Below are positions 8,390-18,442 of a DNA stretch of 64,000 nucleotides, in pieces. Below the pieces are notes generated by a model that saw only the letters and a list, made by a program, of their open reading frames with translations, was not told the DNA's origin and searched no databases. How positions within the stretch are numbered: position 1 is the first letter of the stretch; each line of letters begins with the position of its first letter. Source of the stretch: Streptomyces sp. NBC_01707. GTDB lineage: Bacteria > Actinomycetota > Actinomycetes > Streptomycetales > Streptomycetaceae. The stretch covers positions 372,001 through 436,000 of the forward strand of contig NZ_CP109190.1 in assembly GCF_041438805.1 (NCBI RefSeq). The letters run 5' to 3'. Both the position numbers and the translations under genes were made by a program.

Positions 8390-8904
8390 CGAACACGAGT
8401 GTCCACAGGGACGGCGAGCTGCGGAATTGATCGTCGACGGTGGCAGCGGCGCAGCGCACGTCCGTGCGACGCTGTACCGTCGGCGCGACCTCCACCGACT
8501 CACACCCGGGCCTCGTGGCGCTGGTACGTCGGCCGCCGGGACGAATCCCCCGTGTGACGCCATGCTGGCGGATCCTGCACCGCCCGTAGACGTGAGGAGG
8601 GTAATGATGCGAACGAACATGATCCGCAACGAGCGCAGCCGTGAACACGATGGCTCACTGCGGATCGCGTCCGCCTCTAGCCGGATACGGCAGCCTGGCG
8701 CACTGGCCCCATCCATCAGGTGTCACCACCGGCATCCGCTGAACTGCGGCTTCAGTCGGGCGAAGCACAGTGGATGTCACCGACACGGCGCGCGACCTGT
8801 CACCAGCGGCACGCGAAGCAGAGCCGATGTCACCGCCTCTGCGTCCCGCAGCCGGACGTTGGTTGGGCGGATCACAGGGGTGGACTGACCTGGCGCGGTG
8901 ACCG
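8390..8904. other. Stretch without a supportable gene
   Basis: About 500 bp. A GAGGAGGGTA ribosome-site-like string precedes ATG at 8604, but the frame that follows (MMRTNMIRNERSREHDGSLR ...) soon loses codon bias. The stretch next to 8904 is related to the DNA after the second reductase copy at 17653-17760, so the duplication reaches past the gene end. Confidence 0.4.
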
Positions 8905-9759
8905 TCACAGGGCTCCGGCGTCCCGGGCCGTCCAGACGCTCGGGTAGATCGGCCGGAAGCCGAGTTCCCGGCGGATCCGCTGGTTGGACGTGATCCCGAA
9001 CCACGGGTCGGGGTCCGTGAGCTCGTGGATCCCGGCGGGCACTTCGACGCCGTTGAGCTGGTACAGCTCGACCGTCGTGACGGGAGCGTCATCGGCGATG
9101 TTGTAGATCCGGCCGGCGATACCTGGCGCGTACAGCAGACGCATCAGGCCCTGGGCGACGTCAGCGTGGTGTGCCATCTGCAGGCGCTGGTGCGGCGCCC
9201 AGCGGGCGGCCCAATGCAAGGAGTTGGCTAGGTGCGGATCGCCCTCGCCGTAGACGAAGGGGAGCCGCCCGATGCGTACGTCCAGGCTCTTGAGCGCGAG
9301 CAGTTCGCGCTCGGCCTCGGCCTTGGACTCGGGGTAGGCGCCCCACATCGCGCCGCCAGGCCGACTCTCGTCCTCCTCGGTCAGCGGGCGGCCCCGTCCG
9401 ACGCCGTACACATTGTTCGTGCTGACCTGCACGAACCGCTCCACGCCGGAGACCTGCGCGGCGCGGCCCAGGGCCACCGCGGCGTCCCGGTTGACGGCCC
9501 ACGCCTCCTCATCCGGCACTCCGCGGAAGGCTGCGGCGACGTTCACGACGGCGTCCACACCGGCGAGCGCCTTGCCGAGTGCCTCCTCGTCGCGCATATC
9601 TCCCACGGCGACCTGGGCGCCCAGCTCCGCGAAGCGCTCGCCACGGGCCGCGTCCCGCAGCAGGACTCGCACCTGCTCGCCCGGCTGTCGCTGGACCAGC
9701 AGCCTCGGCACGAAGCGCCGTCCAACCTGTCCCGTCGTACCGGTCACCAAGATCAGCAT
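8905..9759 (-). CDS. NAD-dependent epimerase/dehydratase-like reductase
   Basis: A 284-residue extended short-chain dehydrogenase. The Rossmann motif is at the N-terminus (LVTGTTGQVGRRF), the family VNVAAAF segment lies in the middle, and the catalytic region reads VSTNNVYGVG ... YPESKAEAE, which supplies Tyr and Lys of YxxxK. The start ATG at 9759 places the Rossmann motif at once, with AAGGAGCACATC upstream. The substrate is unknown. It is divergent from an XRE regulator 137 bp away, which probably controls it. A 3' copy lies inverted at 17239-17652. Confidence 0.9.
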   Translation of the reverse strand: MLILVTGTTGQVGRRFVPRLLVQRQPGEQVRVLLRDAARGERFAELGAQVAVGDMRDEEALGKALAGVDAVVNVAAAFRGVPDEEAWAVNRDAAVALGRAAQVSGVERFVQVSTNNVYGVGRGRPLTEEDESRPGGAMWGAYPESKAEAERELLALKSLDVRIGRLPFVYGEGDPHLANSLHWAARWAPHQRLQMAHHADVAQGLMRLLYAPGIAGRIYNIADDAPVTTVELYQLNGVEVPAGIHELTDPDPWFGITSNQRIRRELGFRPIYPSVWTARDAGAL

Positions 9760-12164: not shown

Positions 12165-12716
12165 CTAGCCCACCTTCAATTCCATTCTGCAGTCAAGGGT
12201 CTGGGTGAACTCATGATCTCCTTGACGATACTGGAATCGGCAACGCTCGATATTCTTCCTGGGCGGTGACTCGATTCGAATCTTAGCTTGAAAGAATATG
12301 TCGCTTTCCTTCTTCGGTGGGACCTTGACCAGGGACTCTGCGTAGTTCTTGAGGCGGCTGAAATTTGGTGTGTCCGACTCGCCGCCCAAGACTAGTAGAG
12401 GTAGCCCCTCAGTGTCGTTGAGGTCGTAGGCCGCGTAGCTGATTATCCTGAGGCCTTTGGGCGGGTCAACGACACTCGCTCCCGTGATCTCGATGCTCTG
12501 GTCGCTTACGTTGTGGGGCACGGGAAGCGCGAAATACCACGTTTGACCCACCTGTGCGTGCGTGTTGCCGACTGTCCCACTCGACTGTGTTCCTTCTGCA
12601 TCCAGTGCGTGGCCATCAGACCGGGACACAGAGCAGCCGACGAGGAGAGCGCACGCCAGCACTGTTGCCAGCCTAGTAGGAGTAGAAAACGCCCGGCTTC
12701 CCCGAAGGACCGTCAT
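12165..12716 (-). CDS. Secreted lipoprotein of unknown function
   Basis: A 183-residue protein with a lipoprotein signal: basic start (MTVLRGSRAFSTPTRL), hydrophobic core and lipobox LVGC (Cys near residue 28). The mature part is hydrophilic, with TWYFALPVPHNVSDQSIEIT and paired cysteines near the end (ERCRFQY, LDCRMEL). ATG at 12716 has GGGGGAAG just upstream. The first 44 nt overlap the end of the large secreted-protein gene (stop at 12673), so the two were probably an operon. That partner is now split by insertion sequences, which may leave this gene poorly expressed. Confidence 0.75.
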   Translation of the reverse strand: MTVLRGSRAFSTPTRLATVLACALLVGCSVSRSDGHALDAEGTQSSGTVGNTHAQVGQTWYFALPVPHNVSDQSIEITGASVVDPPKGLRIISYAAYDLNDTEGLPLLVLGGESDTPNFSRLKNYAESLVKVPPKKESDIFFQAKIRIESPPRKNIERCRFQYRQGDHEFTQTLDCRMELKVG

Positions 12717-13471
12717 TCTTCCCCCAGATGTAGTGCTTGGAGTTCGTCCGGTCAAGTGCGGTGATGCGCTGCTTGTGGTCGCGGTCGTAGCCTGTCGACC
12801 CGCCCAGGGAGACTCCGAAAGCGCTGACGGCGCCGGACCACTTGACGCTGCGGTTCTTGCTCAGTTGGAAGTACGAGCCTCGCGCAACGTAGGCGCGATG
12901 ACTCTTAGGAGAGGACAGGTATGCAGCTCCGTCCTTGTTGCGGACGTCCTTGCCGTACTTCCCTGTGGCGCCGCCTGCAGGGATCGTATATTTTCCGGGC
13001 TTGATGACGTAGCGGGTGAACGTGTTACCGCCACCACATTTCCATGTCTCTTGGTACTTGTAGTACTTGATCGGCACCTTCCACTGCTTTGCGTAGTAAG
13101 GACCCTTGGCTGTGTAGCCTGTGGTGACGCTCATGGAGGATCCAAGGCTCGCGCTGCCGGAGATCGTCCAGTTGCTGCCGGTCTTTGCTGCGATATCTAC
13201 AGTCGAAGACAGCTTGCTGTCGTAGTCCACCGATGCCTTGGCGTCCCAGTAGGCGTGACCTTCGCCCACCGTGGTGTAGTAGATCTTCTTGTCGATGACC
13301 TTGGACTTTGTGCGGTCGCATCCTCCGTCCATCGGCCGCACGATCAGGCCCTTGGTGTCCTGCCCGTTGACTACGTAGGGGTTGTAGCCGGTCGGCAAGC
13401 CCCCTGTCGCGTTCTGCCACTTGGGAAGTGGACCGTCCTCAAGCGTATCGGTGGGGCTCGCTTCCTGCTTC
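12673..13471 (-). pseudogene. 3' part of the IS-split secreted-protein gene
   Basis: This frame runs from the insertion point (KQEASPTDTLEDGPLPKWQN) to a stop at 12673, about 265 residues. It is Tyr/Lys/Ser/Gly-rich (WDAKASVDYDSKLSSTVDIA, ISGSASLGSSMSVTTGYTAK, YYKYQETWKCGGG) and looks like a beta-rich secreted or surface domain. It has no start of its own at the junction. Joined to 17183-15736 after removal of both insertions, it completes one 748-codon reading frame. I recognise no family. Confidence 0.85.
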
Positions 13472-13475
13472 TTAG

Positions 13476-14867
13476 TACTCCAGTCAGAATTCGTGTCCTG
13501 AGCTGCTGGTTGTCGTTGTTCGGGTATGGACGTGTTACCTGAAGTCGATTGCTGGAAGGCCGAGTTGGAGTCGGTCTTCGCTCGGGTGGCGGGCCGGTTC
13601 GGGCGGGCGGATCTGCGGTGGCGGATGCGTGACTATGTGCGGGGATTGCTGGCGCCGGTCGGGCGGAAGAATGGCTGGCAGCTGGCCGAATGGGCCGGCC
13701 ACCGTGATCCGGCGGGCCTGCAGCACCTGCTGAACGGTGCCCGCTGGGACGCCGATGCCGTCCGCGACGACGTGCGGGACTACGTCGCCGATCAGCTCGG
13801 TCCGGGCGGGGTACTGATCATCGATGACACCGGGTTCGTCAAGAAGGGCACTACCTCGGCCGGGGTGAGCCGGCAGTACACCGGCACCTCGGGGAAGATC
13901 GACAACTGCCAGATCGGCGTGTTCGCCGCCTATGCCACCAGCTCGGGCCGGGCCCTGGTGGACCGGGAGCTCAACCTGCCGAAAGTCTGGACCTCCGACC
14001 GTGAGCGGTGCCAGGCAGCGAAAATCCCTGATGAACGCGGCTTTGCCACCAAAGGGGAGCTGGCCCGGGAGATCGTGCGCCGCTGCCTGGCCGCGGGCCT
14101 CCCGGCCGCCTGGGTGACCGCGGACGAGGCCTATGGGCAGGACTGGAACTTCCGCCGCCTGCTCGAGCAGCTCGGCCTCGGCTACGTGGTTGCGGTGCCC
14201 AAGTCCCAGCAGATCAAGTCCCTGGCGGGGATCTGGCGCATCGACCAGCTCATCGACGAAGCCCCCGCCGATGCCTGGCAGCGGCTGTCCTGCGGCGACG
14301 GGGCGAAGGGCCCACGCGTCTATGACTGGGCAGCGGCGAAACTGCCCGCCAACATCATTTTCGACCCGGATCCGCCGAGTCATCATCGCTGGGTGCTGGC
14401 CCGCCGCAGTCTGTCCGACCCCACCGAGATCGCCTACTACCTCGCCCACGCACCCGTCGGCATCGAGATCGACGAACTCGCCCGCATCGCCGGCAGCCGG
14501 TGGGCGGTCGAGGAATGCTTCCAGGCCGCGAAGAACGAGTGCGGCCTGGACGAGTACGAGGTCCGCCGCTATCCGGGCTGGTACCGGCACATCACCCTGG
14601 CCATGCTCGCCCATGCCTTCCTCACCTCCCTGGCCGCCCAAGCCGCCCACCGGGAAACCGCAGAAACGAACCGACCAGCATCGTCCCCCTCACCGTGGCA
14701 GAAATCCGACGGCTCCTGGACACTCTCCTGCCCCACCCCAGACCCGAACTCAACCAGCGTCAGCAAGCCCTGAGATGGTCCCACTGGCGCAGACACCACC
14801 AAGCCATCGCCCAACGATGCCACTACCGGAAAAGAGCCAGCTCAGGACACCAAATCTGACTGGAGTA
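13476..14867 (+). mobile_element. IS701-family insertion sequence, 1392 bp, TTAG target duplication
   Basis: The ends are inverted repeats: the left begins TACTCCAGTCAGA and the right ends TCTGACTGGAGTA, with similarity continuing inward through GTGTCCTGAGCTG. The target duplication is TTAG (13472-13475 left; right copy at 14868-14870 plus 15736-15739, itself split by the next element). This fits the YTAR targets known for IS701-family elements. It interrupts the large secreted-protein gene. Confidence 0.9.
13526..14773 (+). pseudogene. IS701-family transposase, C-terminus frameshifted
   Basis: A DDE transposase of the IS4/IS701 type. Candidate catalytic residues lie in LIIDDTGFVKKGTTS, WVTADEAYGQDWNF and GSRWAVEECFQAAKNECGLD. 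The frame ends at 14773 with an unrelated tail. The expected tail (EPTSIVPLTVAEIRRLLDTL, then LNQRQQALRWSHWRRHHQ) is encoded in the next frame to about 14859. A single indel near 14670 therefore changes the last 50-60 residues. The catalytic core is intact, so residual activity cannot be excluded. Confidence 0.85.
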
Positions 14868-14870
14868 TTA

Positions 14871-15735
14871 GACGGTGTCCTATGTGGGCTTCGCTCGTTG
14901 TGCTGGTCATGGGGCGGGGTACGTGGAGTTGGATTGTTCCGGACGGGCTGTGGGAGATCGCCAGGCCGTTGATCCCGGAGGACCGGGTGCGACCGCAGGG
15001 CGGCGGCACCCAGAACACGCCTGATGAGACGCTGTTCGCGGCGATCATCTACGTGCTGGTGAGCGGATGTTCCTGGCGGGCTCTGCCGCCGTGCTTCGGG
15101 ATATCGAAGTCGACGGCCCACCGCAGGTTCATGATCTGGTCGCGGGCCGGGGTGTGGGGCCGGCTGCACGAGGCGGTCCTGCACCAGCTCGACGACGCCG
15201 GTCTGATCGACGTCTCCCGCGTCGTCCTCGACTCCGCCCACGTGCGCGCAAAAAAAGGGGCGAACTTACAGGTCCGAGCCCCGTGGACCGAGGCAAGCCG
15301 GGTTCCAAGATGCACATCCTGTCGGACGCGAACGGACTGCCCCTGGTCGTCGGCCTCTCCGCCGCCAACACCCACGACAGCGAAGGGCTGAAGCCCATGG
15401 TGGCCGGTCACCAAACGAGACACGACCCCCACCGAGGCAGGTACTTCAAGCCCCAACGCCTGCACGCCGACAAGGCCTACGACATCCCCCACCTGCGAGA
15501 ATGGTTACGCGGCAAACGCATCGGCGTGCGCATCGCCCGCAAAGGCACCGAGTCCAGCGAACGATTAGGACGCCGACGATGGGTGATCGAGCGGACCATG
15601 TCCTGGCTGACCGGCTACCACAGACTCAACCACCGCTACGAACGCTATCCCCGCAACTACCTGGGCTTTCTCGGCCTCGCTGCCGCCCTCTGCTGCTACA
15701 AACGCTTCCTCAAACTCACCACATAGGACACCGTC
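14871..15735 (+). mobile_element. IS5-family insertion sequence, 865 bp, TTA target duplication
   Basis: Perfect 16-bp terminal inverted repeats (GACGGTGTCCTATGTG and its complement) bound the element, and TTA is repeated at 14868-14870 and 15736-15738. The target is the TTAG duplication left by the IS701-family element, so this insertion came second. It encodes a two-frame transposase. Confidence 0.93.
14882..15726 (+). CDS. IS5-family transposase in two overlapping frames (-1 frameshift)
   Basis: The first frame starts near 14882-14909 and encodes the N-terminal DNA-binding domain and first catalytic Asp (VPDGLWEIARPLIPEDRVRP ... VVLDSAHVRAKKG). The second frame carries the rest (GPSPVDRGKPGSKMHILSDA, LHADKAYDIPHLREWL, RRRWVIERTMSWLTGYHRLN), ending at 15726. 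A run of seven A at 15250-15256 is read A-AAA-AAA in the first frame. It is a good -1 slippery site just where the frames overlap, as known for many IS5-group elements. The fusion is probably about 280 residues and active. Confidence 0.85.
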
Positions 15736-17183
15736 TTAGCCCAACTCTGGGAAAAGGCCGCAGTTAGCTTGGAGTCCGTCGCTGGGTTTTGCGCCTCGCT
15801 CAAGCTTGATACTTCGTTGCTGTCCGTGGACGTGGACAGCGGCAGCAGTTGCGCAGGCTCGGCGTTCTCGTCGTCAGCAACTGCCAGACTCCGCGCCGAG
15901 GCGGCGGCGGTGGCCGGCGCCGCCGCGAGGTGGGTAATTCCCCCCATGGGGACACCAGTCGACGTCTTGCCCGTGGCGGTCGCCATCGCGTTGACGATTC
16001 CGCCGTTTTCAGCCGCGGCTTGCCGCACGTCGGTGGGCAGCGTACTGGGCAGGGTAAGTGACCAAGTGCCGTCGGCAGCGGTGACGGTAGACCCCAGCGA
16101 CGGGAGGTCCACCTCGGTACCATCCTCGGGGACGGCATCTATAGCTTCGACCCTGACGGTCAGCCCGGCGGCCGGCGCGCCGCTTCCGAGGGTGAATTTG
16201 CCCTTGAGTACTTCGGGAGCACCAGGGGCGGGGGGCTCGCCGGGTTCCTCGGCCACAGCGGCGGGGGCGTCAGGGTCATCCGCTGCGGCACCCATTGTGG
16301 GCTTTGCTTCGCCTGCGTCTGCAAGGCATGTAGCTGTATCCGCGAGGAAATAGCCGAAAAGCCCCACGCCGTATTCGCTGTTGGTGACAGCTAGTTTCGA
16401 CGCTCCCGCGTACGCCTGCACGGTGCCGTCACTCGTGGCAGTCCGTACAGTTCCCGGGCCGACTCCCCACCCCTGTCTCTGCTCGGAATCGGTGGTACCA
16501 ACGACAGTGCCCTGAGACGGGAATCTGGGGTAGGTGCTGGGAGTGTACGTCCAAGCGCGGATCACGCCGTCGGTGAGGGTGTACGCGGTTGATCCGACTG
16601 CCCACACGTCATCTGCCTCGGTGAAGGCGACCACTGCCGGATTGTTGTAGGCATGGACAGTGGGATCTAGGGTAACTTCACCGTCCCCAGTGAGCGGCGA
16701 GCTCTGATGCCAGATTTCCAACTTGCCGCCGCCGTGAATGGAGAAGATCAGATCCCCATTCGACCAAAGCCGATTTCGGCGAGCCGTCCAGTTGGATGTG
16801 TAAGTCTTTACGGGAGCCAGCAAGGCGCCCCCACTGGCACTGCGGTCCTTGTAGGACTTGAGTATTCCGTCCGACGTGACCTCGTAGATCACGCCGTGTC
16901 CGCCGGAGAGGTAGACGCTGTCACTGTTCAGCGTCGCTGATACCCCCGTATCGAACAATGCTGAATCGGTGGCGTCCGACGGGTTCCAGTCAAGATACTT
17001 TTGCACCTTGTTTCCATCGGGGTCTATGAGGTATGTCGCCACCTCTGTATGGCACGCTTCGGCAGCGGAAGCGCTGGCTCCGCCCGTGAACTCCGGAACT
17101 GCAATGGATCCCACAGTCAAGGCGGCTACGAACGCTCCGATCATAATCAGCCTGGACCGTCTTCGAGGATTGCTAGATGACAC
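15736..17183 (-). pseudogene. 5' part of the IS-split secreted-protein gene
   Basis: GTG at 17183 follows a strong GGGGG ribosome site. The protein begins with a basic n-region and hydrophobic segment (RSRLIMIGAFVAALTVGSIA) and a signal-peptidase-like ASASAAEA site. Residues about 40-290 have WSNGDLIFSIHGGGKLEIWH-type stretches suggesting a beta-propeller or lectin-like fold. Next comes a Pro/Ala/Asp linker and a carboxypeptidase-regulatory-like segment (TVRVEAIDAVPEDGTEVDLP, VTAADGTWSLTLPSTLP). The frame ends at ...SQSWAK at the insertion. It continues in frame in 13471-12673. Function is unknown; a surface or secreted binding protein is likely. Confidence 0.85.
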
Positions 17184-17238: not shown

Positions 17239-17652
17239 ATGGCAGAGCGCGAACTGCTCGGGCTCAAGAGCCTGGACGTACGCATCGGGCGGCTCCCCTT
17301 CGTCTACGGCGAGGGCGATCCGCACCTCGCCAACTCCTTGCATTGGGCCGCCCGTTGGGCGCCGCACCAGCTCCTGCAGATGGCCCACCATACGGACGTC
17401 GCCCAGGGCCTGATGCGTCTGCTGTACGCGCCAGGTATCGCCAGCCGGATCTACAACATCGCCGATGACGCTCCCGTCACGACGGTCGAGCTGTACCAGC
17501 TCAACGGCGTCGAAGTGCCCGCCGGGATCCACGAGCTCACGGACCCCGACCCGTGGTTCGGGATCACGTCCAACCGGCGGATCCGCCGGGAACTCGGCTT
17601 CCGGCCGATCTACCCGAGCGTCTGGACGGCCCGGGACGCCGGAGCCCTGTGA
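17239..17652 (+). pseudogene. Truncated second copy of the 8905-9759 reductase
   Basis: It encodes AERELLGLKSLDVRIGRLPF through the identical C-terminus VWTARDAGAL and differs from the reductase at 8905-9759 at only a few residues (G for A, L for R, T for A, S for G, R for Q). The N-terminal half with the Rossmann motif is absent; upstream DNA belongs to the secreted-protein gene region. Similarity extends about 100 bp past the stop. It cannot bind cofactor and is a relic. The copy is inverted relative to the first. Confidence 0.9.
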
Positions 17653-18442
17653 CGGTCACCGCGCCAGGTCAGCCCTGGTGATCCGCCCAGCCGGCATCCG
17701 TCCGCGGGGGGTAGGGGTGATGACATCGCCTCTGCTTCACGTGCTGCTGGTGGCAGGTGGCCTTCCAGCCGAGTTGCCGGGCCGTTTTGCGCATCGCGGC
17801 CCGGATCAGCTCCACCCCGCCCAGTCCGACGGCTTCCTCATCGTCCAGGCTGGCAGTTCCTTGTCCAGCCACTCCTCGACGGTCCTTCGCCAAGGATCCG
17901 AGGGATCACTGTCGGCGACGTCGGCCCAGGCGTCCTCCGCCATGCCGGGGTCGATGAACAGGCTGTCGAGGTAGGCGTGTCGGCACTCCGCAGAACAGGC
18001 GCCTTCACTGCCTGTGGGGCACGTCACCGTCGAGGCCGGGCTACGAACGCGAAGGCCCCTGGCCGACCACGCCGGGCCAGCGCGCACTTGGAGCACCAGC
18101 AGCCACACCGGTCTGTTGACCACTCCTTTGGGCTCGGCTTCGCACGCGAGGTGCCACTCAAGTTTCACCGTGCCTGTAGACGTTCCGGGCCAGCCGCGAC
18201 CTTGCGGGGCTGCCTGAATGACGGCTCCACGACGTCAGTATCCACGCACCTCCTCTGGAAGCGGTTCGGGTACCTGCTGCTTCGCACCTGTGCAACTGCG
18301 CTTACTGGCCCCGGAGATCCCCTTGTGGTTCATCTGCGGGGCGACAAAGGTGCAGTCCGAGCCGCGGGCGCGATGGTGCGCCGATTATCTGATGTCCCAC
18401 TACCGGACCCGGGCTGTACCGGGCCGTCGGAGGCACTTGTAC
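17653..18442. other. Rearranged stretch, mostly without genes
   Basis: Apart from the SMI1-like fragment inside it, no intact gene is visible. At 17669-17835 on the minus strand a short coding-like piece (VELIRAAMRKTARQLGWKA) may be part of another small gene. 18000-18440 shows nothing I can name. Confidence 0.4.
17835..17975 (-). pseudogene. SMI1/KNR4-like C-terminal fragment
   Basis: The translation YLDSLFIDPGMAEDAWADVA, then DSDPSDPWRRTVEEWLDKEL, nearly matches the C-terminus of the SMI1-like gene at 26519 (YLDSLVVDRDVAEDTWADVV, DPWRRTVEEW ... LDKELPGW). Only the last 45 or so residues remain. It shows that this family had at least two members here. Confidence 0.7.

What the first reader, a model, noticed from the sequence alone, without database searches (positions are those of the whole stretch)
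12673..17183. Two nested insertions split one secreted-protein gene, and the ancestral frame can be rebuilt exactly
An IS701-family element (13476-14867) duplicated TTAG, and an IS5-family element (14871-15735) then inserted in that duplicated TTAG, duplicating TTA. Deleting both and one copy of each target joins SQSWAK to KQEASPTD in frame and yields one 748-codon gene ending at 12673. The order of events is therefore fixed by sequence. The reconstructed protein has a signal peptide, a propeller- or lectin-like region, a linker and a Tyr/Lys-rich beta domain that I do not recognise.
Basis: partly seen in the sequence, partly recalled or inferred. Interest (0 to 1): 0.75.

Follow-up and report, generated by a model that had tools for sequence, protein, structure and literature searches.

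The report
Two stacked jumping elements break gene
A Streptomyces gene for a secreted protein is split by two small mobile elements sitting tip to tip, and comparison with relatives suggests that the second element landed on the tip of the first, in the opposite order to the one first proposed.

Summary
The anatomy is right: an IS701-family element (13476-14867, flanked by TTAG) and an IS5-family element (14871-15735, flanked by TTA) split one open frame of 748 codons, and uninterrupted homologues span both halves. The claim that sequence fixes the order is wrong. The IS5 element begins with G and the gene has G after its target TTA, so both orders give the same letters. Relatives favour the reverse order. 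IS701 duplicates YTAR, and IS5 insertion into TTA makes a new YTAR (TTA|G) at its tip. In locus L174 both IS701 flanks read TTAG while the outer IS5 flank reads TTAA, which fits IS5 first; IS701-first would put IS5 into A-TTA-G, absent from 36 standalone IS5 copies. The host gene belongs to a family whose named members are all Streptomyces: tachylectin-like, transthyretin-like and uncharacterised C-terminal parts, followed by a lipoprotein gene that is intact here and occurs in more genomes than the big gene. A secreted-antagonist/immunity pair is my untested guess. No structure could be predicted.

The parts
15736..17183 (-). 5' part of the broken secreted-protein gene (GTG start at 17183; signal peptide by eye, tachylectin-like region, transthyretin-like region)
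   Evidence: open frame; homologues; 14 of 53 homologues match PF14517
12673..13471 (-). 3' part of the same gene: uncharacterised Tyr/Lys-rich C-terminal domain, stop codon 12673-12675
13472..13475 (.). TTAG, left copy of the IS701 target duplication
13476..14867 (+). IS701-family element, tips TACTCCAGTCAGA / TCTGACTGGAGTA
   Evidence: transposase NF033540 E 1.5e-138
13526..14773 (+). IS701 transposase ORF (415 aa)
14868..14871 (.). TTAG, right copy of the IS701 duplication; 14868-14870 is also the left TTA of the IS5 duplication and 14871 is the first base of the IS5 element
14871..15735 (+). IS5-family element, tips GACGGTGTCCTATG / CATAGGACACCGTC
   Evidence: NF033580
14882..15391 (+). 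IS5 transposase, first ORF (DUF4096); the frame changes near an A7G4 run
15067..15726 (+). IS5 transposase, second ORF (DDE_Tnp_1)
15736..15738 (.). TTA, outer copy of the IS5 duplication, followed by G (15739)
12168..12707 (-). intact downstream gene with a lipobox-like LVGC (by eye), overlapping the 3' end of the broken gene; start codon not fixed

Best explanation
A member of a Streptomyces secreted-protein family was broken, apparently recently, by two transposition events. Most likely an IS5-family element went first into CTTAG within the gene, duplicating TTA (inferred from comparison). Because this element starts with G, its insertion made a new four-base site TTA|G at its own tip. An IS701-family element, whose target is YTAR, then inserted into that site and duplicated TTAG, one base of which belongs to the IS5 tip (consistent here; best supported in relative L174). 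The downstream lipoprotein gene stayed intact. The host protein, when whole, is probably an exported surface-binding protein whose C-terminal domain works with, or is countered by, the lipoprotein (inferred).
For: Junctions and duplications. Recurrence: of 10 plasmid sites (15 records) with a complete IS701 copy at 83% identity or more, 8 have an IS5-family end 3 bases from the IS701 tip, 1 another IS701-type end, 1 neither. L174: IS701 flanks TTAG/TTAG, outer IS5 flank TTAA. L117: in a 110-bp IS5 end fragment the last base is T instead of C and the IS701 duplication is TTAA on both sides, so the changed tip base looks copied. Standalone IS5 copies with a clean duplication: 5' base C 28, T 6, G 2, A 0 of 36, whereas IS701-first needs A in every pair. 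Intact homologues and lipoprotein.
Against: At this locus itself the sequence fits both orders. Among 14 genome sites of close IS701 tips (at most 1 mismatch, G000 left out) only 2 abut an IS5-type tip (L172, L174), and in L172 the matching transposase lies about 780 bp from the tip. Of 53 IS5-group loci fetched through the IS5 searches and with both tips found, none abuts a TACTCCAGT tip. Under IS5-first, L110 would itself need IS5 in A-TTA-G, and L134 and L174 need T and G at the 5' side. In L114 the two IS701 flanks differ (CTCA/CTAC). In L111 and L116 the IS5-type duplications are imperfect. In L075 an IS5 copy sits in the CTAA beside another IS701-type end without straddling, which can be read as IS5 entering an IS701 duplication. 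Of the homologous gene loci fetched (L028-L038, L040-L046), none contains either element, so no intermediate at the window's own site was found.
Confidence: 0.8

Rival explanations
1. One reading: IS701 inserted first into TTAG, then IS5 inserted into the right TTAG copy.
For: Gives the same final letters here. IS5 elements of this group prefer TTA followed by G (28 of 36), so an IS701-made TTAG is a plausible target; the outer base is G in the window, L110, L111, L112, L116, L133 and L134. L075 can be read as such an event with another IS701 type.
Against: Would place IS5 in A-TTA-G in every pair; A is the 5' base in 0 of 36 standalone copies. Does not fit L174 (outer TTAA, both IS701 flanks TTAG) or L117 without extra mutations.
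Confidence: 0.15
2. The pair moved into the gene together as one compound unit.
For: The same two elements lie tip to tip in the same order with the same 3-bp spacing in L110 and L111.
Against: Each element has its own duplication here, and neither element's tip is repeated at the far side of the pair. In L112, L114, L117 and L134 the IS5-type partner is on the other side, in L134 also inverted, and the flanks printed differ.
Confidence: 0.03
3. The tip-to-tip pattern needs no taste for IS tips: IS701 and IS5 elements share a scarce target, insertions into genes are purged, and IS-rich plasmids let stacks survive.
For: YTAR is scarce (65, 25 and 72 sites in stretches of 64, 50 and 50 kb). The eight IS5-type partners examined hold only 0-2 YTAR inside, so the tip is often the main site they offer. 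Tip adjacency is common on plasmids but only 2 of 14 in genomes.
Against: 8 of 10 plasmid sites stays unlikely even if one in five YTAR sites were tip-made (tail 8e-5, a rough null of my own); with the same null 2 of 14 genome sites is unremarkable (0.80).
Confidence: 0.45
4. The secreted protein is an ordinary surface or matrix protein and the lipoprotein an assembly partner, not an antagonist/immunity pair.
For: No toxin, enzyme or defence family is matched by either half above cut-off; the C-terminal part is the constant part while the N-terminal part varies, unlike typical polymorphic toxins (recalled).
Against: The lipoprotein is found in 21 of 295 genomes, the C-terminal domain in 9 of 295, 8 shared, and remnants of the big gene lie next to an open lipoprotein frame in G181, G019-C2 and G183-C210.
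Confidence: 0.45

Closest known systems
IS701 family insertion sequences (PMC2266710, passages read)
   Same: about 1.4 kb, one DDE transposase ORF, ACT near the tip, 4-bp target duplication
   Different: The passages read mention no preference for ends of other elements; here the duplication often straddles an IS5-family tip
IS4321/IS5075, which target the terminal repeats of Tn21-family transposons (title seen in the reference list of PMC11187229)
   Same: A mobile element that lands at the ends of other mobile elements
   Different: IS1111 family, guided by an RNA (PMC11187229 title and passages) to its own kind of target; here a DDE element with a 4-bp target that a neighbour's tip happens to complete
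IS5 family (group with 3-bp TTA/TAA duplications)
   Same: Tips, size and transposase match
   Different: Transposase reading frame is split near an A/G run in this copy; several relatives of the same length are split there too, while L134 is a single frame
Pfam Tachylectin (PF14517) proteins
   Same: N-terminal part matches weakly (E 0.0052 for the window half, below cut-off; 14 of 53 homologues, best 5.5e-07)
   Different: Fused to a transthyretin-like region and a conserved C-terminal domain with no Pfam match above cut-off

Membership tests
IS701 family | transposase of the family above curated cut-off | tested here: met
   NF033540 462 bits, cut-off 150
IS701 family | 4-bp target duplication | tested here: met
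   TTAG on both sides; identical 4-base flanks at 9 of 10 sites read (L114 differs)
IS701 family | inverted terminal repeats with ACT near the tip | tested here: met
   TACTCCAGTCAGA at both ends; consensus in PMC2266710 passages
IS5 family | transposase of the family above curated cut-off | tested here: met
   second ORF NF033580 122 bits, cut-off 110; the first ORF alone, 92.6 bits, is below it
IS5 family | short target duplication and matched inverted repeats | tested here: met
   TTA/TTA, 15-bp ends matching without mismatch
IS5 family | intact single transposase frame | tested here: inconclusive
   two overlapping frames; programmed frameshift not distinguishable from damage
Tachylectin (PF14517) | score above Pfam gathering cut-off | tested here: not met
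   window half 17 bits, cut-off 29.8
Toxin-immunity pair | partner gene kept when the big gene is lost | tested here: inconclusive
   suggestive, but weak lipoprotein matches may belong to other systems
Toxin-immunity pair | C-terminal domain similar to a known toxin | tested here: not met
   (sequence profiles only; no structure)
Toxin-immunity pair | killing and protection | not testable with these tools
   needs bench work

The most novel reading that the evidence does not exclude
This IS701 group is drawn to the tips of IS5-family elements of several subgroups. Each IS5 insertion into TTA/TAA makes a YTAR site across its own tip, the IS701 insertion copies that site again, and so Streptomyces plasmids and chromosome arms build self-extending stacks of elements; one such stack silenced a secreted-protein gene while its lipoprotein partner survived.
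Probability: 0.35. Interest if true: 0.55.

Novelty: new variant of a known kind. Interest (0 to 1): 0.4.

Why it matters
It shows that nested insertions whose order looks fixed can be ambiguous when an element's tip base repeats the target base, and that copies elsewhere can help to settle it. If the tip preference is real, it gives a simple mechanism by which mobile elements accumulate in stacks instead of hitting genes. The host gene marks a family of unknown function, with named members only in Streptomyces, and a lipoprotein partner that can be tested.

Tried and rejected
An apparent intermediate (L085, IS5 alone, against L114, IS5 plus IS701, with similar right flanks) was rejected: BLAST found no collinear flank, and the L114 flank has an inverted partner 1158 bp away, so it looks like an end of a third type of element, not a shared locus. 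A loose inverted-repeat test for neighbouring elements (up to 3 mismatches) hit 96 of 487 control sites, so on its own it was not used for counts; for L116 and L133 I used it only with 0-1 mismatch together with the annotated IS5-family transposase. The base after the outer IS5 flank (G in most pairs) was considered as proof of order and dropped, because standalone copies also have G in 28 of 36. A compound transposon was considered and disfavoured.

The phage collection gave no match to the 3' half and the plasmid collection four records, all Streptomyces.

Rows left out of the 10-site count: partial matches, and full-length matches near 76% (H54-H56, two sites by my grouping). With the latter the tally would be 9 of 12 (L136 abuts an IS5-like two-ORF transposase at 35% protein identity, L137 none). 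Of H39-H42 two of four records were read (through H3 and H6), of H47-H49 two of three (through H10 and H49); I treated each group as one site. In the genome set only tips with at most 1 mismatch were counted; at several sites only one of the two tips was seen. The genome-contig scan (14 stretches) holds several of the same sites and was not counted separately.
Full report
Observation. The window holds an IS701-family element at 13476-14867 between two copies of TTAG (13472-13475, 14868-14871) and an IS5-family element at 14871-15735 between two copies of TTA (14868-14870, 15736-15738). Transposase families were confirmed by profile. The bases 17183 to 15736 and 13471 to 12673 on the minus strand add to 2247, that is 748 codons and a stop. 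I counted coordinates and did not join letters.

Is it one gene? In 295 genomes of the genus searched, the 3' half matches in 9 and the 5' half in 11, the window's own genome included. Five other genomes have a single uninterrupted frame over both halves (G161, G019, G066, G279, G033; 748-852 codons stop to stop), and G188 has one over the 5' half and part of the 3' half. In G161, the closest (86% for the 3' half, 78% for the 5' half), the two matches are one codon apart. Protein searches found 43, 94 and 11 homologues, overlapping sets; many rows carry no name, and the organism names that are printed are all Streptomyces. Neither half has internal stops, and dN/dS of each half against G161 and a plasmid homologue (KN37) is 0.13-0.16, like the relatives against each other (0.14): the break is probably recent, though a pairwise test is not sensitive.

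Is the order fixed? No. If IS701 came first, the gene had TTAG, was duplicated, and IS5 entered the right copy at TTA. If IS5 came first, the gene had TTA followed by G; IS5 duplicated TTA; the IS5 tip begins with G, so TTA|G reads TTAG; IS701 entered that and duplicated it. Both give TTAG-IS701-TTA-IS5-TTAG.

Evidence from other copies. A search of plasmids with the whole region returned records carrying both elements together elsewhere. With the IS701 element alone as query, so that IS5 did not bias the ranking, 15 of 48 records had a copy matched from base 1 to 1392 at 83% or more, which I group into 10 sites. At 8 sites an IS5-family end lies 3 bases from the IS701 tip (L110, L111, L112, L114, L116, L117, L133, L134), at one another IS701-type end (L115), at one neither (L135). 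The partners show three tip types (GACSGTGTCC; GAGCTCGTAAC in L116; GAGGATGTCTC in L133) and lie on either side of the IS701. In 392 genomes searched (the window's own included), 14 sites other than the window's have a tip with at most one mismatch; 2 of these 14 abut an IS5-type tip (L172, weakly, and L174), 1 an IS701-type tip (L175), 2 a GAGCTGTCCCG tip at GTAA (L183, L188), 9 nothing recognised. Looked at from the other side, of 53 IS5-group loci fetched through the IS5 searches and with both tips found, none abuts a TACTCCAGT tip. So the pairing is strong on plasmids and weak in the genome sample.

Target rules. The IS701 group mostly duplicates YTAR (CTAG, TTAG, CTAA, TTAA). Of 61 distinct IS5-group copies with both tips, 36 stand alone with a clean TTA/TAA duplication, 16 have unequal or other duplications, and 9 abut a tip ending in GGAGTA or GCAGTA. 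For the 36, turned to read TTA, the 5' neighbour is C 28, T 6, G 2, A 0 and the 3' neighbour G 28, A 5, T 2, C 1. Since the element starts with G and ends with C, an insertion into TTA or TAA makes a YTAR across one tip (TTA|G or C|TAA). YTAR occurs 65, 25 and 72 times in stretches of 64, 50 and 50 kb.

Which came first? IS701-first would put IS5 into A-TTA-G in every pair, because IS701 ends in A; that context is absent from the 36. IS5-first gives C-TTA-G in the window, the commonest context (21 of 36). In L174 both IS701 flanks are TTAG but the outer IS5 flank is TTAA: under IS5-first the G was copied from the IS5 tip; under IS701-first the outer flank should be TTAG. In L117 a 110-bp IS5 end fragment ends in T instead of C and IS701 has TTAA on both sides, as if the changed tip base was copied. 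Against this, L110 needs A-TTA-G under either order, L134 and L174 have T and G at the 5' side, L111 and L116 have imperfect IS5-type duplications, L114 has unequal IS701 flanks, and in L075 an IS5 copy lies in the CTAA beside another IS701-type end, which can be read as IS5 second. I put IS5-first in the window at about 0.8.

Does IS701 seek tips? Not shown. IS5-type partners have only 0-2 YTAR inside (8 examined), genes are poor places to survive, and plasmids are rich in elements, so shared scarce targets plus survival may suffice. With a rough null in which one in five YTAR sites is tip-made, 8 of 10 has a tail of 8e-5 and 2 of 14 one of 0.80; the null is my own guess.

The host gene. Homologues keep a transthyretin-like region and a C-terminal domain with invariant residues (for instance C512, E531, H533, D537, C606, H693, H707, W710 in P0002, among 95 aligned), while the N-terminal part varies: a tachylectin-like region in the long homologues, other repeats in P0101 and P0104, nearly nothing in P0097. 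Pfam finds Tachylectin in 14 of 53 scanned; the C-terminal domain matches no Pfam family above cut-off and no solved structure convincingly. Directly downstream, overlapping the 3' end, lies a lipoprotein-like gene; in the genus-mates' loci and in the KN37 plasmid it was found beside every C-domain match except that of G188. It occurs in 21 of 295 genomes against 9 of 295 for the C-terminal domain, 8 shared, both at E 0.001. In G181, G019-C2 and G183-C210 it is open beside remnants of the big gene, and in G231 beside a transthyretin-like piece with a stop. Weak lipoprotein matches (25-31%) may belong to other systems. This recalls immunity genes that outlive their toxin (general knowledge), but no toxin domain was recognised, so I offer it as a guess.

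Literature. Searches for IS701 with IS5, target, nesting and Streptomyces showed, in the parts listed (20 of 29, 20 of 35, 20 of 814, 12 of 1156, 1 of 1, 12 of 17 papers), no title or abstract opening about IS701 at IS5 tips; one search on the host gene (12 of 106 listed) showed nothing on it either. I read passages of PMC2266710 (4-bp duplication of IS701), PMC9208149 and PMC11187229, and no whole paper. The library lacks most subscription journals. IS231A targeting of Tn4430 ends is recalled; a search for it was not followed into a paper on that point.

Verdict. A real, probably recent double insertion, correctly drawn but with an order that the sequence does not fix and that relatives suggest is the reverse; it belongs to a recurrent, modestly novel stacking pattern in Streptomyces, in a host gene family of unknown function.

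Noticed in passing
window 8792-9316 and 17241-17761: A 525-bp inverted repeat, 93.5% identical (part of a gene that looks like a nucleotide-sugar epimerase, judged by eye), one copy of which begins 58 bp upstream of the broken gene; the region between could have been brought in or rearranged.
   Followed up: partly
L139, L142, L144: IS5-group copies abutted by another element with tip TACTGCAACGG at the same TTA spacing; in L144 the outer base is A.
   Followed up: no
L226 15440-16960: A second IS701-family element of another subgroup (tip TAGGGCTTGGTCAG) lies next to an IS5-family element with CTAG between, in the same plasmid as L110.
   Followed up: partly
L183 and L188: Two separate IS701 tips lie at GTAA next to a GAGCTGTCCCGTAAT end, not a YTAR; unexplained.
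   Followed up: no
L207, L208, L209: Homologues of the downstream lipoprotein follow what look (by eye) like FG-GAP repeat proteins, not the C-terminal-domain gene.
   Followed up: no
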